Positions 10,528 to 32,148 of a stretch of DNA of 64,000 nucleotides are shown here, in pieces (the first letter of the stretch is position 1; each line of letters starts with the position of its first letter). Both the position numbers and the translations under genes were made by a program. Source of the DNA: Telopea speciosissima (lineage: Eukaryota > Streptophyta > Magnoliopsida > Proteales > Proteaceae); assembly GCF_018873765.1 (NCBI RefSeq), contig NC_057917.1, positions 52,879,464 through 52,943,463 on the forward strand, in the 5' to 3' direction. The notes under the pieces are model-generated. The model had not been told where the DNA came from, did no database searches, and worked only from the letters and a program-made list of their open reading frames with translations.

Positions 10528-11377
10528 ATGCCTCAACAACTACTTCTCCACCGTCCTCCCGCTCTGCTCTCTCTCGTCCTTTTTATGTTATTATTGATGA
10601 TGAATAAATCCGATAGCGTTTCCCTGAACATATCCTCCAGTCTCTGCAACTCTTCGTTTGATTGCGGCAACGACATTATCATAAGGTACCCTTTCTGGCA
10701 CATCGACCATACGACAATTTCCTCCTCCGTCGTCTACTGCGGTTACCCTGGCTTTGGTATCTCCTGCTTCGACGACAACGAACCACCCGTTCTTCGCCTC
10801 CCAACTGATGCCTACTACGTAAAGGGTATCAACTATTCCTCCCACACCCTCACCCTCGTCGACACCGATTTCTCCATTCTTCAAACACCATCATGTCTCA
10901 ACCCAACTTGCAACGTTTCTCTCTCATACTTTCCCAACGTAACCTACACTCCTTCGGATCGCAACCTCATTTTCTTATTCAACTGCAACTCCGCATCCTT
11001 CTTTCCTACACACTTACAAGGGCAACACGTGTCTCCCATCTCCTGTCTCTCCAACAATCCCACCAACATGTCTTACGTTTTAACGGAGGCAGAGTTTCTG
11101 AAACTGCAAGGGTGGTTCGATTGGAATCTCCATTGTGAGTTCAACGTGGTGATTCCGGTCAGTTGGTCAGCTAATCTGACGGATCTGAGCACTGGTTATG
11201 CAGAGGCGTTACGTTCTGGGTTCGAGTTGAATTGGGGAAGATTCAGACACTGTGTTGAGTGCGAGGATTCCGGTGGGCGTTGTGGGTACAATCTCACTAG
11301 TACAAACACGGAGATGGAGCTCCTCTGTTTTTGCTCCGATGGAGTTCGCGTGGGTTCCACCTCCACTTGCCACCCCG
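10528..11377 (+). CDS. LRK10L/WAK-like ectodomain exon, cassette 1
   Basis: Encodes 283 residues plus one base of a shared codon. Residues 1-30 form a hydrophobic signal peptide. A GUB_WAK_bind domain follows, with a 'DCG' motif, 'RYPFW' and 'YCGYPGFGISC'. A WAK_assoc-type C-terminal part contains the Cys cluster 'CVECEDSGGRCG' and 'LCFC'. Many N-x-S/T sites fit an extracellular glycoprotein. The frame is open upstream to 10354, but the Met at 10528 is chosen because it aligns with the start of cassette 2 and puts the signal peptide at the N terminus. The exon ends in phase 1 at CCCCG|GTACGT. No transmembrane or kinase exon lies before cassette 2, so the nearest in-frame partner is the acceptor at 30499 (intron about 19.1 kb). 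Read-through would add about 24 residues and stop at 11452. It could instead be an orphan truncated paralogue. Confidence 0.75.
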
Positions 11378-11872
11378 GTACGTTTCCTACCACCCCTTGT
11401 TTCTCTATGATACAAATACCATACAAACCTTCTCTGTTCTCTGTTAGAACTTAGTATAGAGTGGGGATCCTTCTCCTCCGGCCCATATGAAATGATCAAT
11501 CCCCCTTGTTTTTGCTCCCCGCGCCACGGCTGGAGGGGAGACGGGTCCGATCTTTGCTCGGAGAACCAAATTGGGGGATCTTTGCCAATTTGATTCTCCT
11601 CCACATGATAGAAGCTGGAAAATCCAATCCAACAAAAACAGGGGACCCACAATCTATCTCTATATCTTACCTCCCCCGTATAAACACATTTGGATAACCC
11701 TGCCGGCTGCTCCAACTATTTAGTTTTTTTTTTCTTTTCGTCTTTTTTTTAAAGCTATAGTAGACTTTATTTATTTATTTGGATATAACCAATTTACTAT
11801 ATTATTAATAAAAAAACATTTGGTCAACGTCACCACCCTCACGAGTATGTCTCTAACTCAAAATCATTCTTG

Positions 11873-11990
11873 TTTTTTGTGGGGGTGGTGAGGGAACTTA
11901 GACCAGATGAGGAATAAGGGGTCTCGAACTAGAAACCTTCTAGGGGCTAGGCTCTACTGTACTAATCTCAAGCTACCGCTAATCTCTCAA
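11873..11990 (-). mobile_element. tRNA-derived SINE fragment
   Basis: The minus strand has an A-box-like TAGCGGTAGCTTGAG and, about 40 bases later, a B-box-like AGTTCGAGACC, in the order and spacing of a pol III promoter. A T-rich stretch lies just beyond the element on the plus strand's left side. The fragment lies in the DNA downstream of cassette 1. Confidence 0.4.
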
Positions 11991-11999
11991 CTGAACTCA

Positions 12000-12870
12000 A
12001 ATTCATTCTATATTTATCTGTAAAATTTCATTTTTATTTTTCTTTTAATGCATAACAAAAATTTTAATTAAGCAAAACAATGAAAAATATCCAAAGTGGC
12101 ATTTGTTTTTTTTTGTTTTTTCGGTCTTGCATGTACTACAAGATCATAAGCTGGAGCTATTAAGTATCTATCCTAGTTAATTACATGTATATTATAGAGA
12201 AATTGTTCTGACTAGTTTTAATGTCCCACATAATAATAAAGATTTCCCAAGGCTACTTACCATTGAGTATCTTGTTTAATCTATTGCACCAAATCTGTAC
12301 AATCAGTCCAAATGAAAACATCTTCTAATTTGTAATCTCCTAATCTTTGCAATCCTTGTGAGAGCCCCTTTGCTTATGCTCCTTGTGTTATCCCTGCATA
12401 ACCAAAATCTGAATATGCAGAGATTAATTTTTTATTGTGATAAATCACAAAAATCCAGCTTGCCTCCTTTGGATCTTTAATAGAACTTCCATCACAGATT
12501 AGTAAAATTGCATTAGAGGGGGGGAGAGAGATTGGGATCGATCAGTGTCATTAGTGCTAAAAGAAGAGGGTACTAGTTGCAAACCAGAAATCCTTATTTT
12601 TATGTTATGAAGCAATCTAGTTGTTGGATTAGGTTTGGAATTGCAAAATAAGATGGAGTTTCTCATGTTCCAGATAAAATAATAAGTAATAGAGAAAATG
12701 AAAAGAAAAAAAATTCTTATCCATAATCAAAGAAGATAAGACAAAAATAAAAGATTAAAAAGACAAGAATTAATTTGGAGGAACTCAGTCTGTAGGCGTA
12801 GTAACCCCGCTGCCCAGATGTGTTTGTAGAATGAGCAGGAAAGGAATAGATGTCAAGGGGTTTCAGAGTT
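12000..12870. other. AT-rich intergenic or intronic DNA, nothing recognised
   Basis: I see no gene, RNA or clear element here. If cassette 1 is spliced to the kinase module this lies in its first intron. Confidence 0.5.
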
Positions 12871-12878
12871 TTCACTAC

Positions 12879-13035
12879 AAAAAAACACAGTTAACATCAA
12901 TAGGAATAAGTCTATTAAGTTTAATTCGCGTTGGGATACATTCATTGAGGAGCTTCCAATAGAAAAGATGGAACTTTGGATGAAGTTTTACCTTCCAGAA
13001 AAGGTTCCAAAGGAGGGGAGAGGGAGGAAAGAGGG
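12879..13035 (-). pseudogene. LINE reverse-transcriptase zinc-binding domain fragment
   Basis: On the minus strand the translation contains 'LFWKVKLHPKFHLFYWKLL' followed by 'PTRIKLNRL', the pattern of the zf-RVT domain at the C-terminal end of plant LINE reverse transcriptases (W-K-x-K-x-P-K-x-x-F-x-W-K-L-L...P-T-R). Only about 50 residues are recognisable, with no adjoining reverse-transcriptase core. It is a dead fragment inside duplication unit 1, absent from unit 2, so probably inserted after the duplication. Confidence 0.55.
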
Positions 13036-15169
13036 CGGAGCTGGAGCTTGAGGAGAGGGAGGAAGGAGGGGGAAATTTCACAGCCAGGGAAAAGAAAACA
13101 CAATATCTTAAATAATTGGGAAGTGGAATAGGGTGTGGTTCAACCGGATTGATTAAAAATCAAGGAAGAAAGTGTCGAGTTGTCTTCATTATGGTTCGGT
13201 ATGTACTGGTTTGATTCAAACCATTTGCTTTTGAACCAGTCAATTTGAAAGTGTAAAAAGGTGAAAAAGATGGGTAGTTTGGACATTTGATAACATCATG
13301 AGAGAAACAAAGGTAAAAGAATTCACTTTTTCCTTTTCTGTAATGAATCAGAAATAAAATTTAAGGTAGGAAAGTATTAGTAAATATAAGTTAAATATAG
13401 GAAAATGATAGTAATTGCCCCTGCCCTTATCTTTACTATGTTTTCTCCTCTCAATGTGATCTTTCAAAAACCCAACCCAATGATTCAGTCTAGAGAAATC
13501 TTCTTGAAGGCCTAGCTAGTCTAAGTTTGGTCCCAAGGTGGGCTTAATTTGGTATGTACCAAGCCGAGCCCAACTACTTGGGGGTTCTCGGGTAATGTGA
13601 TAATGTCCTTTGGAAGGGCTCTTCAATTAATTTCATGTTTCAGCTCCTGGGTCCTGGGAAGGTTGCTTTAGATGGCATGTATCTTGCTAGCTTTTGTCCT
13701 CTTGGCTACACGGTGTGATATTGGGTCAGGTCAGGTGATATCCTGAGTTCCTGACCCCTTTTTCTTTTCTTTTTTTTTTTTTTTTTTTTTTCCCTCTTTT
13801 TAACAAGTCTCTTCGTTTCTCATTGGGTGTGATTATGTGAATACCCCTAGAGGGTTAAAGGCTTAGATCTATATTTCTCTTTCTTTCCGGCCTCCATCTG
13901 TGAGTTATACGCTTTTACTTCCCAACTTTAGAAACTCTGAGCACATAATCTTGTTCTCTCCCACTCAATTCCCAAACCTGCCATTGTCAACATGGATTTA
14001 GTTATCGATATTGTATTGACCGATATGTATTGATGTCGTTGGTATTAAATATTAATATTTAATCAATGTGTATTGGTAGATAGTATCAAAATATTCTATT
14101 GAATATATCGGTTGGATATGATTGATCGTTCCAATCATATCGGTCATGGTATTGATTAATATATTGTTTAACGTATGAGTATGGTATTGTTTTATACATA
14201 TCGGTATCGTTCCATACTATTGATATGTATTGTTGTTTTTTAAAATTTTTTTGTTTTATTTTATATTATTTTTTGATTGATACAAAAACGGATTCTAAAA
14301 AGATGGCTTTGACAATCCGTATTGAATCATATATATATATAACCAAGCTGAGAGGCATGGCTAAAAACAGAACATATAAATCTATATTATATCATTTGAC
14401 CCAAATGTCATGGAATGTTGTTTTCCTTGTAGTTAAGATATTGAGAATTATAGTCTCACATCAATTTGTTCTGATCTTTGATGACTTCATATGGTTGAAG
14501 AGCTTTCTCCATCTAATGTTTTAGGATTTTGAGTTTGAATCTTAATATATCATCAGATCCCATGACCTTTTGTTAGCGTCCCTAAATATTTTGTCTACAT
14601 GTAGAGTCAAGTTTTCCAAAGCTACATATAAGGGGTAGGGATGGTTAAGTCAATATTTATAGAAATGCCATTGATTGTGGAAATATATCATTTCCACGCT
14701 TTGCATTTAACTCATGCGTAGTTTTTCTAAATTTTTATCCTACCTTTAATTTTCAAATTACATTTATCACTATTAGACAATTAATTAGGTACATATAACC
14801 TACTTCATTACATAGTTCTAGGACAATGGAGGTACGTAGAATTATTAAAAAGAAAAAAGATATTTTCTTTGTTATCTTGCACCTTCTTAGGGATCCTCAA
14901 CACAATACTCTGGGCAATGCCTGAATCTGAAAATTTCGGATCCTATGAACTTAGCCTTAATAGCTAAGAAGGCATAGGAACTCATAAACCCTCAAACTTC
15001 TTTCTCGGGTTGTCTCATGAAACAAAAATACTTTCCTAATTCTTCCATCTTTCAAGCTTCAATTCCATCGTCGGCATCCTGGGGATGGAAATCTATAATG
15101 TGTTCCTCTCTTCTTTTGAGAAAAAGATTATTTTCCAGGTAGGAATGGTCACTCTATACACCCATGGTT

Positions 15170-15544
15170 ATACTACTAGATTCCAATTCATCCACCATTT
15201 GTAGCTCCTTTTCCTCTTCCTAAAGATGCCCCATTATTGGTTGATCAGATTATAAACCCTTTCACTCGATCATGATTTCATTGGTGGTCCCCAGAGATTA
15301 CTCAAGCTATTTTGGCAATCCCTCACCCTTATTTTTCCCGAGTTGATAGGATTGTTTGGACTCCCACTACAAGTGGGGAATTTATGGTAGCATTAGCCTA
15401 CCGCTTAGCAATATGGGAAGAATGCTTTCCCCAACAACATTGATGGCTTAAATTGTGGCATACCCCGATGGCACCGAGGACTCAGATTTTCAGCTAGAAA
15501 ATTATCCACGGCCGAGTCCCTACTGTTGATTTTCTTATCAATTA

Positions 15545-15605
<61 letters not shown>

Positions 15606-15850
15606 CTGGACTGTCCTATAGAAGAAAAAAAAAATTATTTGTATTTGTGTCTTATCTTGGATGATATTCTGTATTTATCTTTCTATTTTGAGTCTTGTAC
15701 CTTTGGATATATTCTAAGGGAGATTAACAATATTGTTGACTCCCTTGCCAGGAGGGCATTGTCACTAACGGGTGAGACAGTTTGACCCAATTTCGATCCA
15801 TGGATTATGGAGATGTGTTCTTCTCCTTATTCCATGTGTACCACTCGATG
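15170..15850 (+). pseudogene. LINE (L1-type) 3' fragment: zf-RVT plus RNase H-like part
   Basis: The plus strand at about 15340-15540 translates, with stops and shifts, to a zf-RVT pattern ('DRIVWTPTTSGEF', then 'LWHTPMAPRT'). After an (AT)n tract at 15548-15602, 15610-15790 resembles the C-terminal RNase H-like domain ('REINNIVDSLARRAL'). Stop codons interrupt the frame. It lies between cassettes 1 and 2. Confidence 0.55.
15548..15602. repeat. (AT)n microsatellite
   Basis: About 27 AT dinucleotides interrupt the LINE fragment, so the tract arose or expanded after insertion. Confidence 0.95.
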
Positions 15851-16490
15851 ACATATAAATAAATTACCCCCTTCACTCATTGAGGGGGGTTGGGGGTGTT
15901 TGTACCCAAAAAAAAAAAAAAAAAAAAAAATTTTCTTGTCCGGCTCAATACTCCAATCCCTCTAATAAGGGAGATGGACACCATCTGAGCAGAGTGTTCG
16001 GATAAGGGTAGAGTGGTCATTATGCCCCCTTGTAAGAATCGTATGTTTTCATCAACTCCAATATTCTATTGTACAAGTTCGAAACCATCCATTCTCATGC
16101 AATTCGATGCTACCGTCGAGCATGGTGAGGGATTCCTCATTCCTTCTTCAAAAAACATAAAGGAAACTACAAGCCAAATACACGTCGTCAACGTAATGCA
16201 TCATGCATCAGCATCAAATAATGGGAAAAATCTCCCCACAATGCTTAATGCAATGTGCAATTCCCTTCTCACCTGATCTTTTTATTATTTTCTCTCTTTG
16301 AAGTATGTAATTGAAAATGATACCTTTTTCAAGATAACCATTGGTACCCATGACCTCTCCCATAAAATATCTAAGAGGCTAGACTACCGCTACAATTTAA
16401 GGTTTCTGTGATTCGGTCAATGCGTCTCTCTTCCTGAGTTCCTTAATTCCCTTCTCTCTGAGCTCTGACGCCTCAACATACCCTCCCGTC

Positions 16491-17304
16491 ATGCCTCGAC
16501 AACCTCTCTACCGTTCTGCTCTGTTCTTTCTCGTCCTTCTTCTTCTTCTTCTTCTACTCTTGATGATGGTGGATCAATCCAATAGCGTTTCCCTGAACTC
16601 ATCTTCCAGTCTCTGCACTTCCTCGTTTGATTGCGGCAACAACGTTACAATCAGGTACCCTTTCTGGCCCATAAACAATCAAACTTCTTCTATCTACTGC
16701 GGTTACCCTGGCTTTGGCATCTCCTGCTCCCCCGACCAACAACCCGTCCTTAGCCTTCCACTTGATGACTACTACGTGGAGAGAATCAATTACACCTCCG
16801 AAACCCTCACCCTCATCGACACCGATCTCTTCCGTCAAACATGTCCCAGGCCAAGTCAAAACATTTCCCTCTCAACCCTTCCAAACGTAACCTACACTTC
16901 TTCTGATCTCAACCTCAATTTCTTCTTCAACTGTACCTACCACCCTTCACCCTCCCAGTTCCCTCCGATGACTTGTTTCTCGACCGGTAAGAATTGGTCT
17001 TACGTGTTTACGGATGGTCAGATTCAACAATTGCCAGCGTTGGATTGGAACAATTTGAATCTCTATTGTGAGGTCAACGTACTGGTGCCGGTCAATAGGT
17101 CATCTAATCTAACGGATCTGATTAATTCTTATTCTGAGGTCTTACAATCTGGATTTGAGTTGAATTGGGGAACGGTCCGAGACTGTGTTGAGTGCGAGAT
17201 TTCTGGTGGGCTTTGTGGGTCCAATAACACTGCCTCCCCCTCCCAGTTCCTCTGCTTTTGCTCCGATGGAGTGCAAATGGGCTTCAACTCCACTTGCCAC
17301 ACTG
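16491..17304 (+). CDS. LRK10L/WAK-like ectodomain exon, cassette 2
   Basis: Encodes 271 residues plus one base. The N terminus has a long Leu-rich signal peptide (residues about 10-28). A GUB_WAK_bind domain follows with 'FDCGNN', 'IRYPFW' and 'YCGYPGFGISC', then a WAK_assoc part with 'CVECEISGGLCG' and 'FLCFC'. It is the closest paralogue of cassette 1 across its length. The exon ends in phase 1 at ACTG|GTACGT, the same donor as cassette 1. If the donor is not used the frame runs 16 more residues and stops at 17355. No kinase or membrane exon lies between here and cassette 3. It would join the acceptor at 30499 over a 13.2-kb intron. Alternatives are a secreted receptor-like protein or a truncated paralogue. 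Confidence 0.75.
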
Positions 17305-17469
17305 GTACGTTTCCTACCCCTTCTATGTACATTACCTTCTCTTCTCTGTTAGAATAGGCAGGAGATCTTGCTGCTCTCCGCGGTCGGATTGGAATCCAGC
17401 TAATTAAGCAGATGCTATATTGCCTATCCATTCCAATCCAATTGTTGGTAACTATTTGCAATTTTAGCA

Positions 17470-17672
17470 CATGCCATTTCTAAATGGGCAGTTTCTTACC
17501 CTCAGTTTTTTTTTTTTTCCATCTTATGCACCGCAATTAGAGATTACTGCTATTGTTGTGGATTTACATCTACGACAGAGTTGCATTGAGTATTGTTCTT
17601 TTCTCTTGTTAGTATATCTAAAAATGTTACTGTCCATGCCATTTCTAAATGGGCAGTTTCTTACCCTCACCA
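17470..17672. repeat. Direct repeat pair downstream of cassette 2
   Basis: A block of about 35 bases ('catgccatttctaaatggg' and onward) occurs at 17470-17506 and again at 17636-17671, both followed by T-rich sequence. It looks like a local duplication; it is not seen after cassette 1. Confidence 0.8.
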
Positions 17673-18530
17673 GATTTTTTTTTGAATTCCTCTTTCTCTA
17701 CAGAATATTCAAGAGCTTGCATGCATGTTTTTGCCAACTCATGGCTAATAATATCTCCCCCTTCTTTAGAAATAATAATAATAATAATTACATCTTACCT
17801 TCCCTAAAATAAATGTTTTGGATAACCACAACTACCTGCTCCATAAGTAGACTTTTCATTTTGTCTAACTATATATATTATTATGGAATTTGCTTGGTGT
17901 AACCACAGCTTGATGCACTAGGTCTGGCACCAAGTCAATGAGCAAAAATGTGGGTTGGAACCTCTATACAATAGGGGTATTTTGGGAAAAAAAAATTAGT
18001 CTCATATTGAAATGGGCTTTGTGTCTTATTTGCTACATATATAGGATGGTCACAATTTTTTGTAACCAAAGATTAACCCTATTATTGATAGATTTGTTCT
18101 TTGTTGACTGTTACATTATTAGTTAATTAGTTAGTTATTGGAAGGTATGGGTGATTATAATCACATAATCACAACCATAATATAGCTGATACATAATGGT
18201 AGCTAGCTAGGCACATTATAGATTAGTGACCCATCATCACCAGTAGAGAATCCCACGCATGGTGACCCTCTGTGGTTGGACTTTAGGGTTATCGATCATC
18301 ACAGTGTCACCCCCAATTGACAAGGTTAAAACTGCCCTCTCTTTGGCCATCTGACACTACCGATTCCCATAATGAAGGAAAACTCAGTCCAGAGAAAGAT
18401 TGTGAACTTTGCTGTCCAAACTTGGTAATCGTAAGGGTCTCACCATTATTTTTGCATTTCAGTTTAGTCGGGCCCTTAATTTTAACTCCTATGTATACTA
18501 AGTATGATACTTAGGGACTTGTAGCATTGT

Positions 18531-18832
18531 ATTTTTTTTTTTGGGTGGGGGTGGTGGGGGATCTTAGACGGAGAATTATCTCTGATTTCCTTCCCAGTAC
18601 AGTTCCCTAGTGCCTCTAATAAGAGTGGGGGGTGGACCTCACCCAGGTAGTATGTTCAGGCAAGGGGTAAGGTGGTCATTTCTGTTCTCCTATAAGAGGA
18701 ATTGCAGGAATTGTACCGAACATGAAATCACAGGGGATAAAGATCCCAGGAGGTCTTGAGCTTGACACCTCTTGAGGACTAACCTCAATGCAATAGCCAC
18801 AAGCCAGCTGCCGCTAGCGCAATTGTTCTCTT
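18531..18832 (-). mobile_element. tRNA-derived SINE-like element
   Basis: On the minus strand an A-box-like CTAGCGGCAGCTGG (near 18815) is followed by a B-box-like AAGCTCAAGACC (near 18755). The plus-strand left end is a T run followed by a G-rich tract. The arrangement resembles the fragments at 11873 and 18884. Confidence 0.4.
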
Positions 18833-18883
18833 GTAGTATTGTACTTGAAATGAGGATAGTATTAATTAGTTTTAAATGTTCGG

Positions 18884-19145
18884 GGTCTTTTTTTTTTTTT
18901 TTTTTCTATTGGAACTAGAGGTGTCCGGCCTTTTGCAGTCTAATTCCCCCAGGGTTCGTGCAGGACCCCACAACACACACGAACCAGAAGATACTGGGGC
19001 CCCCATGTTCACCAGGGAGTTTCCTCTCAGGTGGGTGGTCCCAAGGGGGGGAGGCGGAGTGGAACTTAGGACCTTCAACTTCCTTAGGCCTCCTCCCTTG
19101 CCAACTGCGTTGCCCCTTGGGGTTAATGTGAGGGGTTATATTCTC
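18884..19145 (-). mobile_element. tRNA-derived SINE-like element
   Basis: The minus strand has an A-box-like GCAGTTGGCAAGGG (near 19105) and a B-box-like AGTTCCACTCC (near 19055). An 18-base T run at 18888-18905 marks its other end. Internal open frames are artefacts of this repeat. Confidence 0.45.
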
Positions 19146-19204
19146 ACACATATCATATGATGTTCATGTCTTCACCATTGCTTGAATTTATGAATTTAGC
19201 TATA

Positions 19205-19430
19205 TATCGAGATCTGATCGATTGTATCGGAATACGCATATCAGTTTAATACCGAATCTGTGGTACAAAAATCAAGGAGGGCAAAAGAGTAATAAAAAGA
19301 AAAGAAAAGAAAAGGTATCAGAATCTTTTGGGGCAAAAGAGTCTGATCGGGTTTGATACAACTGATCCATATTGGTATCATATCAATATCGGCGGCAATT
19401 AATATGGTTCCGATATTTTGAACTAAACCT
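19205..19430. repeat. MITE-like sequence rich in 'ccgata/tatcgg' motifs
   Basis: Repeated 'atcgat', 'tatcgg' and 'ccgatatt' motifs resemble the families at 13990-14230, 26084-26313 and 57725-57940. The ends are not sharply defined. Confidence 0.3.
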
Positions 19431-20249
19431 TGCATGGATCATCAGAGTTGGAAAATTTCATATTTGTTTTCTTCTTACCCTACTCGTCACATTTCGGATT
19501 CAATGAGAGGGTGGGAGACAGATTCGTTCCACTAATAGGTGATATCATACAGATTCCTTCCCATGTTAGCAGCGTGGGAAACCCTCTCCCATATTTTTAT
19601 TATGTTTTATCCTCTCAAGGTGATCGATCTCTGTCAAAAAACCTATCCAATGCTCAGTCTGAGAAAACTTCGTCAACGCCTAGCTAAGTCCATATTAGTT
19701 CCCAAGATGGGCTTTCAATTATTAGGCTTGATTTGGTTTGTAAAAGTCCGAGCCCATCTACTTTAGGGGTGGGTTCTTGGCCAATGTCCTTTGGGACTTG
19801 GGAGTATCCTCAATTAGTTTCAGGTTTCAGCTCCGAACCTGTAAAGGTTGCCTTTAAAACTTAGTCAGCTCACTATTCTTATCTTCTAGAATGCTTTTAT
19901 ACATGCTTTAATTGCCCAAAAAAACAAAAAAAAAAGTTTTTTTCGACCCAGAAGGGTGTGAATGGTAATGAGGTTAAGGCTGGATCAAAAGTTCTTATAT
20001 ATTAGTTTTCATATGTTTATTTTACTAAATTGGCATGGAATTTTGTGTAATTTTTGTTGAGATGTTGAGAGTTATAGGATTATAGTTCGTTGTATATTAT
20101 GTCTTTGATGCCTTTATATACTTGAGGAGTTCTCTTCACTTGATGTTTTAAGTTTTAAGGTTTTGGATTAGACCTTCCATAACGTTGTTGAGTCCATGCC
20201 TCTACTTCTCTGTCCACCCATAGAGTCCTTCTTTATCTTTAAACCTGTA

Positions 20250-20688
20250 CAATTAAGACCTATTAGACACAACATGGCACATTGCTAAAGCAAATGAAAT
20301 GTCCACCCTAGTTCTCCCGTAAGAGGAGATAATAAAAAATAAATAATGATGATAATAATAATAATAAATAATTTAAATTACATCTTTGACAAAATTATAG
20401 TCTAATTTAAACTACCATGCGGCAGATATTAGGTTAGAAGGAACCTTCTCCATCATAATTATCATCATTGTCATCATCAACATATTTGTAGGCTATGATC
20501 CATCATGTCTACTCACAGCTCAGAAACAGTTAAATGAGTAAGTCATGAAGCATGAAGACCATTAATATTCTTTGAAGAAGAAGTAAAGTTTGACAACATC
20601 TCCTCTCTGACAAATTATCCTTGAAGCAATAAAGTTTGATAACATCGATCTCCTTTACAACAAATTATCTACTCTTAGCTTCTTCCAA
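20250..20688. promoter_or_regulatory. Presumed upstream region of cassette 3
   Basis: AT-rich sequence with an 'aataataat' tract near 20350 and a short duplicated block ('taaagtttgataacatc' and 'taaagtttgacaacatctc' at 20583-20650) just before the cassette 3 start. I see no convincing TATA box. The regulatory role is assumed from position only. Confidence 0.25.
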
Positions 20689-21487
20689 ATGCATCTGATC
20701 AATCTCCTCTTCCCTTCTCATCTCTTCTTCCTCCCCCTCATCATCATCTCTATTATCAACAATGTTTCGAAATCATCATCAAGTGTAATCGATGAAAGGT
20801 ACTCAAATTGCAGCGAAAACAACTACAACTGTGAGAACCTATCCGGTATCGGTTATCCTTTCTGGGGGAACGGTCGACCTAATTATTGTGGGTTACCTGG
20901 TTTTGAGCTCAACTGCAACAATGGCTCTTCTGAGATAGTGATGGGATCACAAAGGTACCGAGTTCTGGAGGCCTATCTACAACCCCAAATTCTCAGAATA
21001 GCAAGAACAGATTTATGGGAAGATTCATGTCCAAACAAGTTCTTCAACACTACCCTTGATTTCAATCTCTTCAATTACAGTGGTTCTGAAACTAACCTTT
21101 CCCTCTTCTATAATTGTCCTCCTTTAATGGAAACCCTAGCTACTAACAAGATCAGATGCCATTCTGGGGAGGTTTATTTCATGATCTCCTCTTCCAATGG
21201 TACTGCTGATCCATACCAAAGCTTTAACAACTGCAGACACAGAATTGTGGTTCCAATTCTTGAAGCATATGCTCAACAATTGCTGGTCAATCGATCTACC
21301 CTTCTTCCGGAAGCTCTGAAAAATGGTTTCATGGTGGAATATTATACTACAAAGCAAAATCAGTACTGTGGGGAATGCATGAAATCGGTTTGGCGATGCG
21401 GGTATAACTCTTCTTTATGGCATTCTTGCTGCTTTTGCCCTTATCGTCTTTCTACATCCATGAATTCTGCACCTTCTCGTTCCACGG
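20689..21487 (+). CDS. LRK10L/WAK-like ectodomain exon, cassette 3
   Basis: Encodes 266 residues plus one base. A signal peptide (residues about 4-25) is followed by a GUB_WAK_bind domain ('NYNCEN', 'GYPFW', 'YCGLPGFELNC') and a WAK_assoc part with 'YCGECMKSVWRCG' and 'CCFC'; the usual 'SGG' is replaced by 'SVW'. It is clearly more divergent from cassettes 1 and 2 than they are from each other. The frame is unbroken, and the exon ends in phase 1 at CACGG|GTACGT. Unspliced, it stops after 8 more residues at 21514. No membrane or kinase exon follows before cassette 4; the acceptor at 30499 is 9.0 kb away. Confidence 0.75.
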
Positions 21488-23097: not shown

Positions 23098-23488
23098 AGG
23101 GTGTCAATTCGGTGTTGAAACCATTTATCGAACCGGTACCGTACCGAATACAATGCGGTACGATATCAGTATGGAGGTTGATACCGACGGTATATACCAA
23201 TACCGTTCCAAACCGTATTAACATAATATATATTAAATGTATATAATAATTTATATATAAGAATTTAACATACAAAATTTTATATATTTCATACTATATA
23301 TATAATATAATATAAGAAACCGTGTATTGTATCTTATACATACCAAATAAAATCGTACACCGAATCGATACCATACGGTACAATATTAGTATGGAAAAAT
23401 GGTACCGTATTTGGTATGGTACGATATCGGTATGACTATTTGACTTTAGTATTGTACCGGATACCAATACCGTACCAATTGACACCCT
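23098..23488. mobile_element. MITE with AGGGTGTCAATT inverted ends
   Basis: A 391-bp element has ends AGGGTGTCAATT and AATTGACACCCT. Its interior is rich in 'ggtaccgtac' and 'atatcggtat' motifs that pair with each other. The flanks share 'acgtac' close to both ends, so the target duplication is probable but its exact limits are uncertain. Ends of this type are common in hAT-type MITEs. Confidence 0.65.
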
Positions 23489-23776
23489 TGCAACGTACCC
23501 CTATGGGTCAGCGTTCTTTTTCCCTATTTATATTTAGACACATTATTCTCATTCTATTTTTTGTTTTAATTTAATTTACATTAGAGTTTATTTAAGAGTG
23601 GTACGGATATTTGACAAGTTGCTTTTTTTTTTTTTATGGATAAAAAAAAATATAAATTAAACTAAAGAAATAAGAGTTTGTACAATATTGTCTTTGACAA
23701 GTTGAATTAGCCATTTTCGGTGGTTAGAATATGTGCAAGACTCCAAAAGTAGGATCCTTTTAAATATCTAGAGGGT

Positions 23777-23818
23777 GTCTCTCTCTCTCTTTTTTTCTCT
23801 CTCTCTCTCTCTCTCTCG
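23777..23818. repeat. (CT)n microsatellite
   Basis: CT tract interrupted by a short T run. Confidence 0.85.
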
Positions 23819-23922
23819 CCTTTATTTATATGTATATAAATGTTTGGTAGCTAGAGAAGCTGTGCCCCATATTCAAGGAAAGCTATTGAATGCATAGTTT
23901 TTGGAAGAAACCTAGTTTAGAA

Positions 23923-24914
23923 CTTAGTTAGTAAGTTCGGGAATGGTAATTGAACGAAAATGGATATGTAAGATAATTAAACGGACTAAATGGTAATAAT
24001 ACTTTTTAAAAATTTGGCTTCATAAAAGCATACGATAATAATATGGTATGCATTTAATACGGGTATAATATGGTAATAATACTTTAAAAAAACGGACATA
24101 TATTCATTATATAACGTGCATTCATCATCTAATAAATAAAATAATATCATGATTTTATGAACTAAAATAAACACAATAATATAATATACTATATAACATC
24201 TCTAAAATTATCATTTAACATACCAAAATATCAATAATCTACAAGAAATGAATGTAGATTGTCTGAAAATGAGATGAGCAAGTTGATTACCTTATCATTA
24301 AATCATTTTTCCAACATTACATTTCTTTCTATCTACAATGAGATAACCATATATTTTTAATCAGATGTGTTCTTGTGAAGGGGGATGAGTTCCCACTAAT
24401 TAAGCAACACAAGACAAGAGGGAGAGTTCCAGATATGGATCTCCACTGTACACATTAGCTACAAAAGACAGAAAAACAAGAATAAAATAGAATAGAGATT
24501 GAGCCGTTCTCGTCAATATCACACCAGATTCATTTGCTTCACTACCACCATCAAAGTTCAAAGACTAGAGAAACAAGAGGAGAGTCCAAGACTTAAGTGC
24601 CGCTTTGTTAAACAGAGATGGGGAGGATGATTGGAGATGGAGGGCGGCTACTGTTGCGGCAACAGTGTTGCCTGCTACGGTTGGATGTTCAACGCAAATC
24701 GAAAGGGACGAAAGGGAAAGTGAAATCGTTTCTCTAAATTCTAATCTTTTGGGTTTTTTTTTTTTTAAAAAAAAAAACGTATAATATGTGTATTATACGA
24801 ATATAATATTTGATCGATTAAAAAACGTGTTTTTTTATAAAAATACGAAAAAATATAGGGACGAGAGTATTATACATTTAAAAATTCGAATACTATGTGT
24901 ATTTACTAACTAAG
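23923..24914. mobile_element. hAT-like non-autonomous element with 8-bp target duplication
   Basis: A 992-bp element starts CTTAGTTAGTAAG and ends TTTACTAACTAAG. It is flanked on both sides by GTTTAGAA (23915-23922 and 24915-24922), an 8-bp target duplication typical of hAT elements. The interior is homologous to 5294-7366. No transposase is visible. It sits between cassettes 3 and 4. Confidence 0.8.
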
Positions 24915-24922
24915 GTTTAGAA

Positions 24923-25817
24923 GAGCTTAAAACAACTAGGGAGGTTAAAATTACCTAAGAAAGAATAGTGACAAAAAGATATGGATGCCATAGATTTGAC
25001 CTTAAATATGGTAACCACTAACGACCAATAACTCATAGCCCAGGTAAGAAGTCATGAGTTTTACTCTTCCTGGGATCTGACTAGTTTTATTTCCATATGC
25101 TTATTATATCTCATTACATATGTCTTTTGACCCACCTTATTCTAGAGAAGTTGGATTTTCAAAATCCAAAGAGTGGAAGTTGTGAGAGGTTTTCCCAATC
25201 GTACACCAAATAGAAAGGGTTGAAGGTTTTCTGAAGGACCCAAATATTTGATTATGGTCAGGTAAACCCAAGGTCCGTTGTTTACATGTCAAGTTTTAGT
25301 CCAAAGAGATATTGTCAAGTGGCACATAGCGCTTAGAAAATTTAGAGATTAAGAGAGGATGCACTTGCAATATAGGGATAACTAAAAAAAATAAAAACTT
25401 TATGTCAATTACCAAGATATGGAAAAGCATTTGATTGAATTAAGCTTTAAAATTTAACATGTAGGACAGGGTGAGGGTGAACATGGAAGAAGCCCAGCAA
25501 ACCAAAGCAGACGAAAATACCTTTAGATACAGCCTAGCCTGCAATGTGTATTTGAGAAATGGATGGGTGGGTTGGCGCGTGTCAAGGTCGGAGACAAATC
25601 TAGCTTCAGTCTTCACTACAATCCAAAATCACTTTTGACAATTGGACTTATCCTTTCCTGTGTTCCCACTCTGAGTTGGACCCAGACTGGGAATCTTGAT
25701 CAAGAACTCAAACATCGAGTTCAGATCTGCTAGAAAGATGATTCCTTTAAAGTTTGATTGAGCCTCCTAATTTTCTTCTTTAATTATATTCCATATTTAT
25801 TTTTATATATCTTGAAC

Positions 25818-25876
<59 letters not shown>

Positions 25877-26072
25877 GAAGAGGATTCTCTGAGTAAAGGG
25901 CACAGAAATCAATGAGATATATTAGAACAATATCATACATGGGAGGATAAAGAGGTCATTTTATGTCAGAGGAGAGGAATAGATACTGAAATGCTAATGT
26001 ATCCTACATTCCTAATCCAATTATTCAAAACTTTTTCCTAATAATAAAGGAAAGAGATTCTTTGAGCTGTCT
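24923..26072. other. Intergenic or intronic DNA, nothing recognised except an (AAT)n tract
   Basis: No gene or defined element is seen, apart from an (AAT)n microsatellite at 25818-25874. Confidence 0.5.
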
Positions 26073-26083
26073 TATGGTTTTAA

Positions 26084-26313
26084 GTATACGGGCGATACAT
26101 ACTGGATTTGCTAGTCACCCATACCAATATCGTGCCGCTACCATATTGACAACATGGTACGGATAAGGGGTAAAATGATTAGAAAACTCTCTTTTTTAAG
26201 GATATTCAAAGGTAATTTTGTCTGATACAGTCGATCTAAGCCAATACCGTATCGATATTGTATTGGTTTTACGAGTTACCGATGTCCGTTCTAATACCAT
26301 GCACTAAAATCAT
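26084..26313. mobile_element. MITE related to 57725-57940
   Basis: Shares ordered blocks with 57725-57940: 'gggcgatacatac', 'tttgctagtcacc', 'ccaataccgtatcgatat' and a terminal 'actaaaa-cat'. The ends ATGGTTTTA and TAAAATCAT form a short inverted repeat. Confidence 0.6.
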
Positions 26314-26329
26314 GAGTTGTTGGCTAGTA

Positions 26330-26330
<1 letters not shown>

Positions 26331-26374
<44 letters not shown>
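26331..26374. repeat. (CA)n microsatellite
   Basis: About 22 CA dinucleotides followed by a CT tract, about 470 bp upstream of the cassette 4 ATG. Confidence 0.95.
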
Positions 26375-26378
<4 letters not shown>

Positions 26379-26844
26379 CGCTCTCTCTCTCTCTCCTCAC
26401 ATGAAATAATCTCGCTACCTAGTAGCATATAATATTGTTCTGTTGTATTCCCCCCTGTACCGCCTTGCGCCTGGAATGATCGTTGCATGTTTGGTCTTTT
26501 ACACCTTTCCAAAGGGGTGCGCCAGTCATTTTGCACTTGACTGTGTCCGGCATTATGTGACTTTTTTTCTCCCTAATATTAATAATAATAATCTCACCAA
26601 AAAAATAATAATAATAATAATAAAATTTATTATTATTATTATTAAAAATAATAGTGAGAATACTATAAGACGGTGTCACCAAGTCAGTCAAACACGCACC
26701 AACCAAAAGAAGAAGCGTCCCCATCCACTGATAAAGATTCCTCCTCTCATCCTCTGCTCTATCAGCTCCCTTATCTCCATTCACTTAATTCCTCTGTTCT
26801 GAACTCTCTCTTCCTCTGGATTCCTTCGATCTCTTCTTCCCCAA

Positions 26845-27631
26845 ATGATTTACTCGTTGAGGGACCCCTTCCCTGTACTGATCTACACCACCCTTCTCAT
26901 CCTTCTCATAAACTCCGAAATCCAAGAAGCCAAATCACTGGACCCGCAATTCGAAGCTTGCAGTCCTTGGAACTGTGGTAATGGACCGAATATAAGCTAC
27001 CCGTTCTGGCCTCCACTCTTCACAAAACCCTACTGCGGCCGCTACGGCTACGAGGTAAACTGCGTTGGCCACAAACCAGGCCTCATGATTAACGACTCCC
27101 AGCACGAATACCACATCAGAGACATCTTCTACGCTAAGAACTCACTTCGAGTGGTCAACGCCAATGCATTAAAGGAAGATTGCCATGTTCCCCTGCATAA
27201 TCTTACCCTCGATGGCACCCCTTACAGCCTCGACCACCACTCCGTCAATCTCATCTTCTTCTATAATTGCACAAGATCGATTTCTTCCCTGTATTCTTTT
27301 CCGGTAACTTGTTCGACTAAGGAAACTGGGTATCACTCGTTCGCCGTATTCGAGCACCATTTGAATTTGCTGTACAATAAATATTTTTTCAACCAGACAT
27401 GCAACTCTACAGTGAGTGCGCCCGTAGACATGAATGGTACGAGTTTTGTGGATTCTTTACAAGGGAAGAATTACTCGCAGTTGTTAAGGAGAGGCTTTCT
27501 GTTGAATTGGAATGAAAGTGATAATTGCACTGAATGCAGAGCAAGCGGTGGCCACTGCGGATTCCAGAACAAAGAGTTCTGGTGCTTTTGCCCCAATGGA
27601 CGCAGACGCCAAAACTGCCCTGCTGTTGCAG
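26845..27631 (+). CDS. LRK10L/WAK-like ectodomain exon, cassette 4
   Basis: Encodes 262 residues plus one base. A signal peptide (residues about 8-29, 'VLIYTTLLILLI') precedes a GUB_WAK_bind domain ('WNCGNGPNISYPFW', 'YCGRYGYEVNC') and a WAK_assoc part ('NCTECRASGGHCG', 'FWCFC'). The 'NISYPFW' motif is the family consensus. The exon ends in phase 1 at GCAG|GTGAGT, a near-ideal plant donor. Unspliced, the frame continues 36 residues to 27744. It resembles cassette 5 more than cassettes 1-3. The acceptor at 30499 is only 2.9 kb away, past cassette 5, so exon skipping or an own promoter would suffice to join it to the kinase. An upstream 'tactataagac' at about 26659 may be a TATA-like element. 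Confidence 0.78.
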
Positions 27632-28139
27632 GTGAGTCCATCATTTCAGGAGTCTCATCTGCGATTTTCAATTACTCTTTCCATCAACTTTCTTTTTCTC
27701 AATTTTCTTTCAAGGTTTTCTTTCTTTTGATGATCAATGGATAGGCACCGTTGAAACTTGAGAGTTAGTTAAGTCTGAGTTGGGCGGAGAAGTCTGAAGG
27801 AAATTTAAACTTATCCCACAACTGATTCAAGTAAAGGCTTGGTAGAGTGGTGGAAGTTAACAAATTGTTAACGTGTATAACTAGTATACCTTGGAGTCTT
27901 TCTTAATCTTCAAATTTTAAAGTGGGCTTGTTCTTAAATTCAATTCCTAAGAAGATCAAAGCCTTGGAACAGATTTGAGAATCGATAGTTGAAAATTCTA
28001 AGTCAAAGTTAGACCTTCGGTGTACGGGTAGAATGGAGCCAATCAGATGTGAGATATTATATTTGAGTATAGACTTTGGACAGTTCTGACTTTAAGGGGT
28101 TGGGGTTCATAGGTAACCATGAAAGTTCCACTTGCAGGA

Positions 28140-28280
28140 GGGGGAAAAAAAAAAAAAAAAAAAAAAAACCTATCTCAGATGGTGCCGGCTTGTAGCAATT
28201 GGTTGTGTGACGCCCTTGTCTTATGGGCAGCGCCAGCGAGGCTGCCGACCATAAGGACAATTGAACCACGGTGCCCCTGA
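28140..28280 (-). mobile_element. Possible SINE-like element
   Basis: A long A run on the plus strand (about 28145-28167) is followed by sequence whose minus strand has tRNA-like blocks ('GTGGTTCAATTG', 'GCCTCGCTGGCGC'). Boxes are weak. It lies between cassettes 4 and 5. Confidence 0.3.
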
Positions 28281-28441
28281 TGAAGTCAAAGTTAAGACCG
28301 CTAGGGAGCCTTGAGACTACGTGAGGCTCTGGTCCTCACCCGTCATGATCCTCTCTATACCATACACACACAGTCTCTTCTGATATTTTCTCCATCACAT
28401 ATTCATACTCTCCCTCTCTATCTCCATTTCTAAAGTCTAAA

Positions 28442-31400
28442 ATGGATGAGCAAATCCAGTTCATGTCGTACAAGCAATCTTCCTCAACAAGGTCAATGGG
28501 CATAAGCATCCCTGCCTTCTCCTTGATTTTCCTATTACTTCTATCAGTGCAAACAGCTCTATGCGCAGACTGGAGATATGAAGCTTGTAGTAAGGACGTC
28601 AGTTGCGGTGAAGGACCCAACATTGGTTACCCGTTTTGGATTGATGGTAAACAAGATTTCATCTGTGGCATCCCGGGCTTTCAGCTGACCTGCAAGAAAC
28701 GGCAGCCCACCATCAATTTCTTTACTGCTGACTATGTCATCCGTAATATCTCCTACCAAAACCAAACACTTCGAGTCATTGATGCCAAAGTTCAAACAGA
28801 TGGTGGGTGTTCATCTCAAATTCAGAACCTCACCCTGGATAGCACACGCTTCCGCTATGGTCCAAACCATGCAGATCTCTTCCTCTTCCTCAATTGCAAC
28901 CAATCCCTCCCTTCTGAATATTCACTTCACGGGATCAATTGTAGTTCCGTCTCTTCTATGGCGTTACTCGAGGACGATCCCGTGTTGGATAAAGCGAAGG
29001 CTTTGGGGTATTGTAATCGAACGGTAGTCGCACCAGTTGACAGGAATAGTACAAATGGTGCAAATAGTGGAGTCAGCGATGTGTATGGAAATTCGTCATA
29101 TTACACACAGCTGTTGAAGGAGGGGTTTGATTTGATATGGAGTGCTTCTGACTGCAGCAAATGCCAAAGAAGCGGTGGACAGTGTGGGTTCAATTGGACC
29201 ACTTACAACTTTATTTGCCTGTGCCATGACCGCCCACACCTCGTGAGATGCGGTAAATGTATGTTCATCTCGGTTCTCTGTTCTCCTCTTAAAATTTCAT
29301 TCATTCTGCTTTTGATTTCGCATACGAAGAAGGAGAGGAAGAGGAAGAAGAGATAAAGAGAGACAGAGAACAACGTTTTTTCATTTAAAAATGATCAGAG
29401 AGCAACAATGGTTGGTTTTGCCTTCCAAAGTCTTCCGTTTCGCCGAAGCGACCATGTTACTCTGGGAATCTGAGCTCCATAACCCTTTCTTTTTTTCTTT
29501 TGGGGGGGGAGGATGGAATCTGAGATTTATTTATTTTTTAAATTGTTTTCATTTACAAATTGATCAGAAAGCAAGAATGGTTGGTTCTGCTCTGCCTTCC
29601 AAGGTCTTCCATTCCACCGAAGCTAACCATGTTCCTCTGGGAATCTCAGCTATTGAATTTTTGAGAATTTTCAAATATTCGTTGGATCCTAGGGTGACCG
29701 TTGACCAAAACAGTTGCCCGAAACCTAACTTGTTGGACTGTCCTCTCTTCTGTATTCTTGTTCACAATCCTGTATATGCAAGAAGATGGGTTATACCTGT
29801 ACTGCTTCCCATGGCTTTGATGGGTTATACCTGTACTGCTTCCCATGGCTTTGTTGTTGTTGCTTTCTCCTTCGGCCTTCATTTACACCTTCCTCTTTAC
29901 TCAGCTCAGGTGCCCCCACATTGTGCTCCATATCACTGTGGAAGCCCACAACATCAGCTTCCCCTTCTTCAACACCAACCCCTAAGAATGTGGAGGATTG
30001 AGCATTATCCAATGTGAAGATTACCCAAAAACCAATGATCATAATTGAGGATATTTGAGGGAGAAACTTTCTATGATTGGTCTGCTACTAATTCCTTTTC
30101 TGTCTTGGAGGTTGGGTTTTCTCTTGAATGGAGTTACCCTATGCAATGTAAAAGTGTGAGATGACATGTCTATGGGATCCATGTAATTCCTATAAGGCTT
30201 TCGAATGTGCAGATACAGGATAGTATACAGGACATAGACTACCTTTTCTGCTTCTTTTCACCCCATTAGCGTTAATCTGTCCATTAGTTGATATGTTAGT
30301 AGCTAATTGTTTGTAACCAAACCTTTTAAAAAAAGGCTTGAACAGGCAGGTCTCAACTTCTCTTTTGTTTTATTTTACTCCTTTGATCACTGACCAGATT
30401 GAGATTTTGGGGGAGAAATATGCATTCATAATTTACCCTCCTACAGTCATTATTACTTAAAACTAAACAATCTGTTGGCTTTCATGATTTTTTGGCAGGG
30501 AACACTTTCAATTTGAAAAGGAAGCTTGGAATAGGTAACACTTGTTCTGTATTTTCTATTTCTGAATTTAATGGTTGTACTCATTATCATATCTCTATGA
30601 TATGTTAAGTTCTCCATATTTACAAAATAAAACAAAAAATGAATATTTTTTCACAATTGCAAAGACTTGATGAATCGTTAAACTGGAAATTTTGTATTTA
30701 AGATCTCCTGATTCACCTCTTAAGATCGTCAAATTTGTTTCCAATTTCTAAGGCTCTTATTGATCATTCTATTTTATTCTCCTTCTCAGGCTTTGGCTCT
30801 CTTGGTGGGGGAATAATTATAGGATGCCTAATGTTCTTCATCTACAACCGACATCACTATCGCAAGGGGGGCCTATTGAATCTAGTCAGAAGCAAAAACC
30901 TCTCTTCTCCTTCTTTAACACCCCTCTCTGGAATTCCATTCGATCCAACCTCGACAGACCTTGAAAATGGAAGCAACTACTTCGAGTTCGGAGTCCATGT
31001 ATTCACTTACAATGAGCTCGAAGAAGCCACTAACAACTTCAATTCTAATAAAGAACTTGGGGATGGTGGCTTTGGCACTGTGTACCACGGTAAATAAGGA
31101 GAAAGATCTTTTTTGTGTTTTCATCACTAGGCTATCTTAGCCACCCCGGCACACCTCAGTTAAATTTATTTAGGAAATCATGTGTTCTGCATGATGAAGA
31201 TTTCTCCAATTTTGTTTACCAGGCAAGCTCCGGGATGGACGTGAGGTTGCAGTGAAGCGCCTTTATGAAAACAACTTCAAGCGTGTTGAGCAGTTCATGA
31301 ATGAAGTCCAAATCCTTACCCGTTTACGCCATCAGAGCCTTGTCACACTATATGGATGCACTTCACGACACTGCCGTGAACTCCTCCTTGTTTATGAATT

Positions 31401-32148
31401 CATTCCCAATGGAACTGTGGCTGATCATCTTCATGGTGATAAAACAGATACTAGGTCACTCACTTGGCCTATAAGGATGAGCATTGCCATAGAGACTGCT
31501 ACGGCACTGTCTTACCTCCATGCTTCTGATATCATACACCGTGATGTGAAAACCAACAACATTCTCCTTGACAACAATTTCCGGGTAAAAGTTGCAGATT
31601 TTGGGCTTTCCCGTCTGTTCCCCACAAATGTTACCCATGTCTCCACTGCACCACAAGGGACTCCAGGCTATGTTGACCCCGAGTATCACCAATGCTACCA
31701 GCTTACAGACAAGAGTGATGTATACAGCTTCGGGGTAGTCTTGATTGAACTCATATCATCAATGCCTGCTGTAGATATCAATCGGCACCGGCATGAGATT
31801 AATTTGTCTAACTTGGCAATCAACAAAATCCAAAATAAAGCTTTGCCCGAGTTGGTAGACCCCTGTCTTGGATTTGATTCAGATTATATAGTACAGAGGA
31901 TGATAACATCAGTGGCCGAGTTGGCATTTCGTTGTCTGCAACTTGAGAAGGAGATGAGACCTACCATGGATGAGGTGTTGGAGAATTTGAAGCAAATTGA
32001 GAATGAAGACTACAACATGGAGAAGGCGGAGGGAGTCAATCAGACAGACTCTATAGGGTTGTTGAAGACTACTATCCCACCATTTTCGCCTGATTCTGTG
32101 ACCAATAAGTGGGTTAGCCAGTCCACCACACCTAATACCAGTTCTTAA
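28442..32148 (+). CDS. LRK10L1-type receptor-like serine/threonine kinase (cassette 5 plus kinase module)
   Basis: A complete gene of four exons, 28442-29252, 30499-30534, 30790-31089 and 31223-32148, all GT/AG and all phase 1, gives 690 residues. Exon 1 carries a signal peptide and the GUB_WAK_bind ('NIGYPFW', 'CGIPGFQLTC') and WAK_assoc ('CSKCQRSGGQCG') domains. Exons 2-3 give a basic linker, then a membrane helix (residues about 284-301, 'GGGIIIGCLMFFIY'). The kinase has the Gly loop (373-380), Lys394, Glu410, HRD with Asp490, Asn495, DFG with Asp508, and the activation segment 'STAPQGTPGYVDPEY'. All catalytic residues are present, and it is an RD kinase. The family acts at the plasma membrane in stress, ABA and pathogen signalling; the ligand is unknown. 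The Met at 28496 (residue 19) may be the true start, since it places the signal peptide at the N terminus. Confidence 0.9.
29253..29395 (+). other. Intron-retention tail of cassette 5: hydrophobic stretch plus basic cluster
   Basis: If the donor at 29253 (GTAAAT, weaker than the GTACGT or GTGAGT of the other cassettes) is not used, the frame runs on to 29356. It adds about 33 residues with a hydrophobic run ('LKISFILLLIS') and a basic end ('KKERKRKKR'). This has the look of a membrane anchor with stop-transfer charge, but may be chance. Only the open frame is certain. Confidence 0.3.
29390..29652. repeat. Duplicated block inside the kinase-gene intron
   Basis: About 85 bases at 29390-29476 ('tgatcagagagcaacaatgg' and onward) are repeated at 29561-29652 with modest divergence. 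The open frame across this region follows the repeat and has no recognisable product. Confidence 0.7.
29785..29852. repeat. 34-bp tandem duplication in the intron
   Basis: Two perfect or near-perfect adjacent copies starting 'gatgggttatacctgtact', at 29785 and 29819. Confidence 0.9.
29922..30163 (+). pseudogene. Decayed sixth LRK10L-type ectodomain fragment
   Basis: Reading the three plus-strand frames in turn gives an order typical of GUB_WAK_bind: 'CAPYHCG', then 'NISFPFFNTNP', then 'CGGLSIIQCEDYP', and finally 'LEVGFSLEWSYPMQC', which resembles the 'GF-L-W' stretch before the WAK_assoc cysteines. At least two frameshifts and several stops separate these pieces, and the middle of the domain is missing. 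It lies in the intron between cassette 5 and the kinase module, where a further first exon would be expected. Confidence 0.5.
30499..30534 (+). other. Shared 36-bp acceptor exon of the kinase module
   Basis: Preceded by TTTTTTGGCAG and followed by GTAACA. It starts with GG, which completes a Gly codon with the single G left by each of the five ectodomain exons, and then reads 'NTFNLKRKLGI'. Its length is exactly 12 codons, so phase 1 is kept through to exon 3. This is the only exon of this kind seen downstream of the five cassettes. Confidence 0.8.

What the first reader, a model, noticed from the sequence alone, without database searches (positions are those of the whole stretch)
10528..32148. 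Five interchangeable ectodomain exons in front of one transmembrane/kinase module
Five LRK10L-type first exons lie in tandem on one strand, each with ATG, signal peptide, full GUB_WAK_bind plus WAK_assoc domains and an open frame. Every one ends in phase 1, leaving a single G before a GT donor (GTACGT three times, GTGAGT, GTAAAT). Only one acceptor module exists downstream (30499, then 30790 and 31223), and it begins with GG, so each cassette would make the same Gly-Asn junction. This would let one locus build up to five receptors with different outer domains and the same kinase, in the manner of clustered protocadherins. I recall that an Arabidopsis LRK10L1 locus was reported to yield two transcripts from alternative promoters; that is the nearest precedent I know and I have not checked it. 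The phases and frames are seen directly; the splicing is inferred.
Basis: partly seen in the sequence, partly recalled or inferred. Interest (0 to 1): 0.92.

Follow-up and report, generated by a model that had tools for sequence, protein, structure and literature searches.

The report
Plant receptor gene with swappable ectodomains
This waratah gene appears to make several cell-surface receptors by joining one of up to five alternative outer-domain exons to a single shared membrane-and-kinase part; the trick is already known with two outer domains in thale cress, and here it is larger and looks very old in flowering plants.

Summary
Five intact LRK10L-type ectodomain exons (C1-C5) precede one TM/kinase module. 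All end in phase 1 before a GT, and each gives an open receptor of 682-703 residues when joined to 30499. tblastn found no second kinase in the window.

The window is Telopea speciosissima. Macadamia isoforms X4, X5 and X6 carry orthologues of C5, C1 and C4 on an identical 420-residue TM/kinase. In 14 of 15 isoform groups picked by eye, ectodomains 24-40% identical sit on an identical block of 397-428 residues.

The principle is published for Arabidopsis: AtLRK10L1 (two promoters) and LRK10L3 (peptides for two first exons). What goes further is the number of cassettes and their age. Cassettes read A-A-C-B-B by type; the order A-C-B recurs in 8 of 10 mixed gene models elsewhere, including a monocot, and origin by duplication within one lineage is rejected in the four species tested.

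Use of C2 and C3 in Telopea, and five separate promoters, are not shown.

The parts
10528..11377 (+). Cassette C1, type A ectodomain first exon, phase-1 donor GTACGT
   Evidence: Pfam GUB_WAK_bind and WAK_assoc; orthologue is the ectodomain of Macadamia isoform X5, 65% identical, tree support 100/95
16491..17304 (+). Cassette C2, type A, tandem duplicate of C1, donor GTACGT
   Evidence: Pfam; 59% protein and 78% exon DNA identity to C1, dN/dS 0.53; no one-to-one isoform found in a relative
20689..21487 (+). Cassette C3, type C, donor GTACGT
   Evidence: Pfam; groups with type-C isoforms of Quercus, Tripterygium, Ricinus and others; no Proteaceae isoform found
26845..27631 (+). Cassette C4, type B, donor GTGAGT
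   Evidence: Pfam; orthologue of Macadamia X6 and X2, tree support 100/99, 67-68% identical
28442..29252 (+). Cassette C5, type B, donor GTAAAT (ATGs at 28442, 28463, 28496)
   Evidence: Pfam; orthologue of Macadamia X4, 100/100, 72% identical; used by the Telopea database protein P0051
30499..30534 (+). E2, shared 36-nt mini-exon, phase 1 on both sides
   Evidence: Frames; homologous segment in Macadamia and Mangifera proteins; the Telopea database protein P0051 does not use it
30790..31089 (+). E3, shared exon with transmembrane segment and start of the kinase
   Evidence: matched by P0051
31223..32148 (+). E4, shared kinase exon with the stop codon
   Evidence: Pfam kinase; the only kinase found in the window by tblastn

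Best explanation
This is one LRK10L-1-type receptor kinase gene with mutually exclusive first exons. Transcription starts at a promoter just 5' of one cassette. The cassette's phase-1 donor is spliced to the shared mini-exon E2 (or past it to E3), and cassettes lying between are removed with the intron because they are first exons without a proper acceptor. Promoter choice thus decides which outer domain is displayed on a constant membrane-and-kinase part. The array is an old inheritance (type order A-C-B) with later duplications within types (C1/C2; C4/C5 older). Shown: anatomy, frames, a single kinase module, orthology of cassettes, isoforms with the same layout in relatives. Inferred: separate promoters, the splicing in Telopea, the use of C2 and C3, and ligand diversity.
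For: Anatomy and frames. Macadamia X4, X5 and X6 share their last 420 residues letter for letter; X2 shares a block of 407-408; ectodomains 30-40% identical except X6/X2 (69%); they are orthologues of C5, C1, C4 and C4. Different LRK10L loci in one plant have tails only 75.5% (Macadamia) and 76.5% (Telopea) identical. 14 of 15 groups picked by eye from the 120 listed rows show divergent ectodomains on an identical 397-428-residue block. Intronless contigs of 2.1-2.4 kb from an unnamed source carry two ectodomains 33-34% identical on tails 98.7-99.2% identical. Arabidopsis: two promoters for AtLRK10L1 and peptides for two first exons of LRK10L3.
Against: No Telopea RNA was seen. In the capped list the locus appears with one Telopea protein only (P0051), which uses C5, reads past its 29252 donor and uses segments between 29568 and 29834 in place of E2. 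No one-to-one isoform for C2, and none from Proteaceae for C3, was found. Most isoforms compared are automatic predictions. The Populus group shows no divergent full-length ectodomains. A crude TATA search found none within 400 nt of any cassette start. C5's donor has three mismatches to CAG|GTAAGT.
Confidence: 0.82

Rival explanations
1. Only C4 and/or C5 feed the kinase. C1-C3 are stand-alone or decaying genes that make short secreted ectodomain proteins by reading past their donors to a nearby stop, like soluble decoy receptors.
For: Each cassette reads on past its donor for 9 to 37 codons to a stop. P0051 uses C5 only. Kinase-less ectodomain models exist in other plants (P0003, P0005, P0006).
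Against: The C1 and C4 orthologues are joined to the kinase in Macadamia; type A and type C isoforms are joined to it in Ricinus. The kinase-less models hold two or three cassettes and look like merged first exons. Donors are kept in all five.
Confidence: 0.12
2. Cassettes can also be internal exons, so that receptors with two or more ectodomains in a row are made.
For: 16 of 147 ectodomain-bearing proteins carry two or more ectodomains, one of them with a kinase directly behind (P0029). In-frame AGs exist near the starts of C2, C3 and C5.
Against: C4 has none in the stretch tested, and any AG was counted. Fused models are what automatic gene finders make from adjacent coding exons, and an internal cassette would keep its signal peptide in mid-protein.
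Confidence: 0.03
3. The layout is an assembly or annotation artefact: kinase exons between the cassettes were lost from the assembly, and the isoforms of relatives are prediction errors.
For: Most isoforms compared are automatic predictions; the raw reads were not available.
Against: The same layout is implied in many species and by different annotators (for example three Reevesia proteins under one gene name), no kinase remnant lies between the cassettes, and Arabidopsis has peptide evidence for the principle.
Confidence: 0.03

Closest known systems
Arabidopsis AtLRK10L1 (At1g18390), transcripts LRK10L1.1 and LRK10L1.2
   Same: One gene, two promoters and two transcripts according to PMC12479429 and PMC10573068 (passages). 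The alternative splicing of LRK10 mini-exons in the title of Shin et al. 2015 (title seen) fits the 36-nt E2.
   Different: Two transcripts against five cassettes here. The primary paper was not held, so its exon structure was not seen.
Arabidopsis LRK10L3 (PMC13136898, passages)
   Same: Peptides for two alternative-first-exon isoforms with distinct extracellular domains and identical transmembrane and kinase parts; the authors propose the same modular idea.
   Different: Two ectodomains; no evolutionary order or array is described in the passages seen.
LRK10L-1 isoforms in database annotation (Macadamia, Ricinus, Magnolia and others)
   Same: Several ectodomains on one identical TM/kinase; Macadamia carries orthologues of C1, C4 and C5.
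   Different: Three or four full-length ectodomains seen per locus at most; present as annotation rather than as a described system in the papers I found.
Clustered protocadherins and UGT1/GCNT2 variable-first-exon clusters (PMC1885805, abstract)
   Same: Tandem variable first exons in front of constant exons; the variable part faces the ligand or substrate.
   Different: Animal genes, unrelated origin, more cassettes; the rules of promoter choice are unknown here.

Membership tests
LRK10L-1 receptor-like kinases | Ectodomain with GUB_WAK_bind and WAK_assoc | tested here: met
   All five cassettes above Pfam cut-offs
LRK10L-1 receptor-like kinases | Kinase closest to LRK10L-1.x proteins | tested here: met
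   Among the 120 best hits of the TM/kinase query, most of those with a family name are LRK10L 1.1-1.4
Variable-first-exon gene cluster | Tandem homologous first exons, each with its own ATG and a donor of the same phase | tested here: met
Variable-first-exon gene cluster | One set of constant exons and no second copy between the variable exons | tested here: met
   tblastn of the TM/kinase part on the window
Variable-first-exon gene cluster | Transcripts join a single variable exon to the constant exons | tested here: inconclusive
   Supported by isoforms of relatives and unnamed intronless contigs; no Telopea RNA
Variable-first-exon gene cluster | No usable acceptor upstream of the variable exons | tested here: inconclusive
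   In-frame AGs found for C2, C3 and C5, none for C4; any AG was counted
Variable-first-exon gene cluster | A promoter of its own for each variable exon | tested here: inconclusive
   Only a TATA pattern search, none within 400 nt of any of the five; start-site data are needed
Clustered protocadherins (strict sense) | Stochastic, per-cell promoter choice (recalled) | not testable with these tools
   Needs single-cell or allele-resolved RNA
Clustered protocadherins (strict sense) | Variable exons encode cadherin repeats (recalled) | tested here: not met
   Pfam gives plant wall-associated domains; the likeness is in layout only

The most novel reading that the evidence does not exclude
The array is an ancestral flowering-plant device, a plant counterpart of the protocadherin and UGT1 clusters. 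Three ectodomain types in the fixed order A-C-B in front of one kinase were in place before monocots and eudicots parted. They have been kept in that order while the ectodomains diverged faster than the kinase and copies were gained and lost by lineage, so that promoter choice selects among several ligand specificities feeding one signalling core.
Probability: 0.5. Interest if true: 0.78.

Novelty: new variant of a known kind. Interest (0 to 1): 0.6.

Why it matters
Plants are usually said to widen recognition by duplicating whole receptor genes. Here one kinase seems to serve several outer domains, and the arrangement looks very old. That makes three questions testable: do the outer domains bind different ligands while signalling stays constant, what selects the promoter, and how many 'single' LRK10L genes in annotated genomes hide several receptors? 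It also means that a knockout aimed at the kinase would remove several receptors at once, while a first-exon allele may affect one only. It would explain the fused, kinase-less LRK10L gene models seen here.

Tried and rejected
Considered and rejected: chance open frames; hidden kinase or TM copies between cassettes; duplication of all five cassettes within the Telopea lineage. The recent-duplication reading holds only for C1/C2. The Populus group did not show divergent full-length ectodomains and is counted as a miss. P0007 and P0060 break the A-C-B order (in P0060 the A call beats C by about 3 bits). The 15 groups were picked by eye and are not every possible group in the list (for example the Gossypium rows were not grouped). 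Twelve rows were dropped before the second tree: they form a fourth set of ectodomains (12 rows, 100/99) seen in Durio, Herrania, Reevesia, Hevea, Juglans, Carica, Mangifera and one species whose name was cut off. This fourth set had no profile, so some of its members may have been called C there (Craigia P0075 is one that could be). No solved relative of the C5 ectodomain was found by sequence. An alignment was made but no structure was predicted. Rfam at gathering scores found nothing in the window. The survey of alternative first exons in Arabidopsis and rice (PMC2174465, passages) does not hold the word kinase. Ten literature searches listed no paper that describes a multi-cassette LRK10L array, but only listings of open PMC papers were seen; the primary Shin and Lim 2015 papers are not held.

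Full report
What the sequence shows. Five stop-free ectodomain exons lie on the + strand between 10.5 and 29.3 kb. Each has an ATG and a hydrophobic start read by eye, and each carries GUB_WAK_bind and WAK_assoc above Pfam cut-offs. All five end in phase 1 before GT: CCG|GTACGT, CTG|GTACGT, CGG|GTACGT, CAG|GTGAGT and GCG|GTAAAT. Downstream are three exons: E2 30499-30534 (36 nt), E3 30790-31089 and E4 31223-32148. Joined to them, every cassette reads to a single stop with the same Gly-Asn junction, giving 682-703 residues if C1 starts at 10528 and C5 at 28442. Skipping E2 also keeps every frame, so ten proteins are possible on paper. tblastn found no other kinase, TM exon or cassette in the window. 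Stop-free stretches of 301-366 codons exceed the maximum of 197 in 200 base shuffles.

What the genome is. A Telopea speciosissima protein (P0051) is 100% identical over 97% of the TM/kinase query and begins with the C5 ectodomain from the ATG at 28442 (compared by eye). Telopea is a genus of Proteaceae.

Does one kinase serve several ectodomains? No Telopea RNA could be consulted, so I used relatives. Their ectodomains are 30-40% identical, except X6/X2 (69%). In the tree of 56 rows, X4 is sister to Telopea C5 (100/100), X5 to C1 (100/95), and X6 with X2 to C4 (100/99). Two different LRK10L loci in one plant do not share tails: 75.5% in Macadamia and 76.5% in Telopea. I picked 15 groups by eye from the 120 rows listed (same species and contig length; Ricinus partly by protein name). 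In 14 of 15, at least one pair combines ectodomains 24-40% identical with an identical block of 397-428 residues; Populus does not. The groups include Magnolia, Vitis, Quercus, Ricinus, Hevea, Durio and Reevesia (three proteins under one gene name). Most are automatic predictions. Transcript-like evidence comes from six 'lgn' proteins on contigs of 2.1-2.4 kb that run from an N-terminally incomplete ectodomain to the end of the kinase without introns. Two ectodomains 33-34% identical sit on tails 98.7-99.2% identical, while two proteins with the same ectodomain type (94%) have tails 99.0% identical, so the tails do not sort by ectodomain (six of the nine lgn rows in the list were compared this way). 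That these are assembled RNA is my inference from length and lack of introns; the tails are not letter-identical, so close paralogues are not excluded.

Age and order. With 50 ectodomains, C1 and C2 fall in type A (12 rows, 96/87), C4 and C5 in type B (18 rows, 99/94), and C3 with the rest, which I call type C (20 rows, one side of a 100/99 branch). Twelve rows of a fourth, fast-evolving set were left out of this tree; they form their own group. Ricinus has types A, B and C on one shared tail. A single-clade origin is rejected for the five Telopea cassettes (p-AU 5.6e-21), the three Ricinus isoforms (4.2e-56), the three pieces of an Ensete model (6.6e-8) and the three Magnolia isoforms (7e-4); for Ensete pieces a and b alone it is rejected more weakly (0.011). 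The test assumes that groups were named beforehand; apart from the Telopea five, mine were chosen after seeing the tree, and Ensete c is a long branch. Of 147 proteins with an ectodomain, 16 models contain two or more, probably neighbouring first exons merged by gene finders. Ten mix types, and eight of those follow A-C-B: Ensete ACB, Tetracentron AC, Senna AC, Rhodamnia AC, Eucalyptus ACC, Craigia CB, Cuscuta CB and Nyssa CB. P0007 (CCAC) and P0060 (CA, weak) do not. None of these ten was used to build the type profiles. The fourth set had no profile and could be hidden among the C calls. Telopea reads A-A-C-B-B. Ensete is a monocot. The Ensete model lacks a kinase and is a prediction, so this is good but not final evidence that the array predates the monocot-eudicot split.

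Rates. Orthologous cassettes in Telopea and Macadamia are 65-72% identical and the kinase domain 90%. C1/C2 have dN/dS 0.53 at dS 0.52; C4/C5 are near saturation. I read this as outer domains that change faster but remain under constraint.

Mechanism. I propose promoter choice followed by splicing of the chosen cassette's donor to E2 or E3, with intervening cassettes removed in the intron. Separate promoters are inferred; a crude TATA search found none within 400 nt of any cassette. E2 is supported by the corresponding segment in Macadamia (GKKRNLVLTLTI) and Mangifera (GNSLDLGRKLGI). The title of Shin et al. 2015 concerns alternative splicing of LRK10 mini-exons and localisation (title seen); that E2 is such a mini-exon is my inference.

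Evidence against. The one Telopea database protein of this locus in the capped list (P0051) uses C5. It reads past the 29252 donor, then uses segments between 29568 and 29834 in place of E2; by my reading the first of these joints needs a GC donor. No isoform found matches C2 one to one. C3 has support only from type-C isoforms elsewhere. Predicted isoforms may contain artefacts.

What is known. Two papers say AtLRK10L1 makes two transcripts from two promoters (PMC12479429, PMC10573068, passages). PMC13136898 (passages) reports peptides for two first-exon isoforms of LRK10L3 with distinct ectodomains and identical TM and kinase, and proposes the same modular idea. PMC13207577 (passage) notes that the first-exon position differs among three transcript variants of an Lr10 gene in a wild relative of wheat. 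So the principle is published. I found no description of arrays of three to five cassettes or of their conserved order in the listings of the ten searches made, which cover open PMC papers only.

Verdict. Observation confirmed. Interpretation supported: strongly for C1, C4 and C5 through Macadamia, at type level for C3, by duplication for C2. New variant of a known kind: a five-cassette case of a published principle, with evidence that the array is ancient.

Noticed in passing
window 32524-33138 (-): An auxin-responsive (SAUR-type, PF02519) reading frame begins just downstream of the kinase exon on the opposite strand.
   Followed up: partly
window about 36915-41048 (-): A copia-type LTR retrotransposon coding region, split over several frames (gag, pre-integrase, RVT_2 matches).
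   Followed up: partly
window 29568-29834 (+): The Telopea database protein P0051 uses coding segments here in place of mini-exon E2, after reading past the C5 donor. Either a real splice variant or a prediction error.
   Followed up: partly
protein P0063 (Macadamia, contig length 36399236): At a second Macadamia locus a shortened, type-C-looking ectodomain fragment (typed by eye) sits on the same tail as type A and type B isoforms; type C may be decaying there.
   Followed up: no
proteins P0041 (Mercurialis) and P0037 (Nelumbo): C3-like ectodomains on a clearly different kinase, read by eye as the LRK10L-2 kind; ectodomains may have moved between kinase classes.
   Followed up: no
proteins of the 12-row group (Durio, Herrania, Reevesia, Hevea, Juglans, Carica, Mangifera and one unnamed): A fourth set of fast-evolving ectodomains, some of them on the same tail as type A or B isoforms.
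   Followed up: partly
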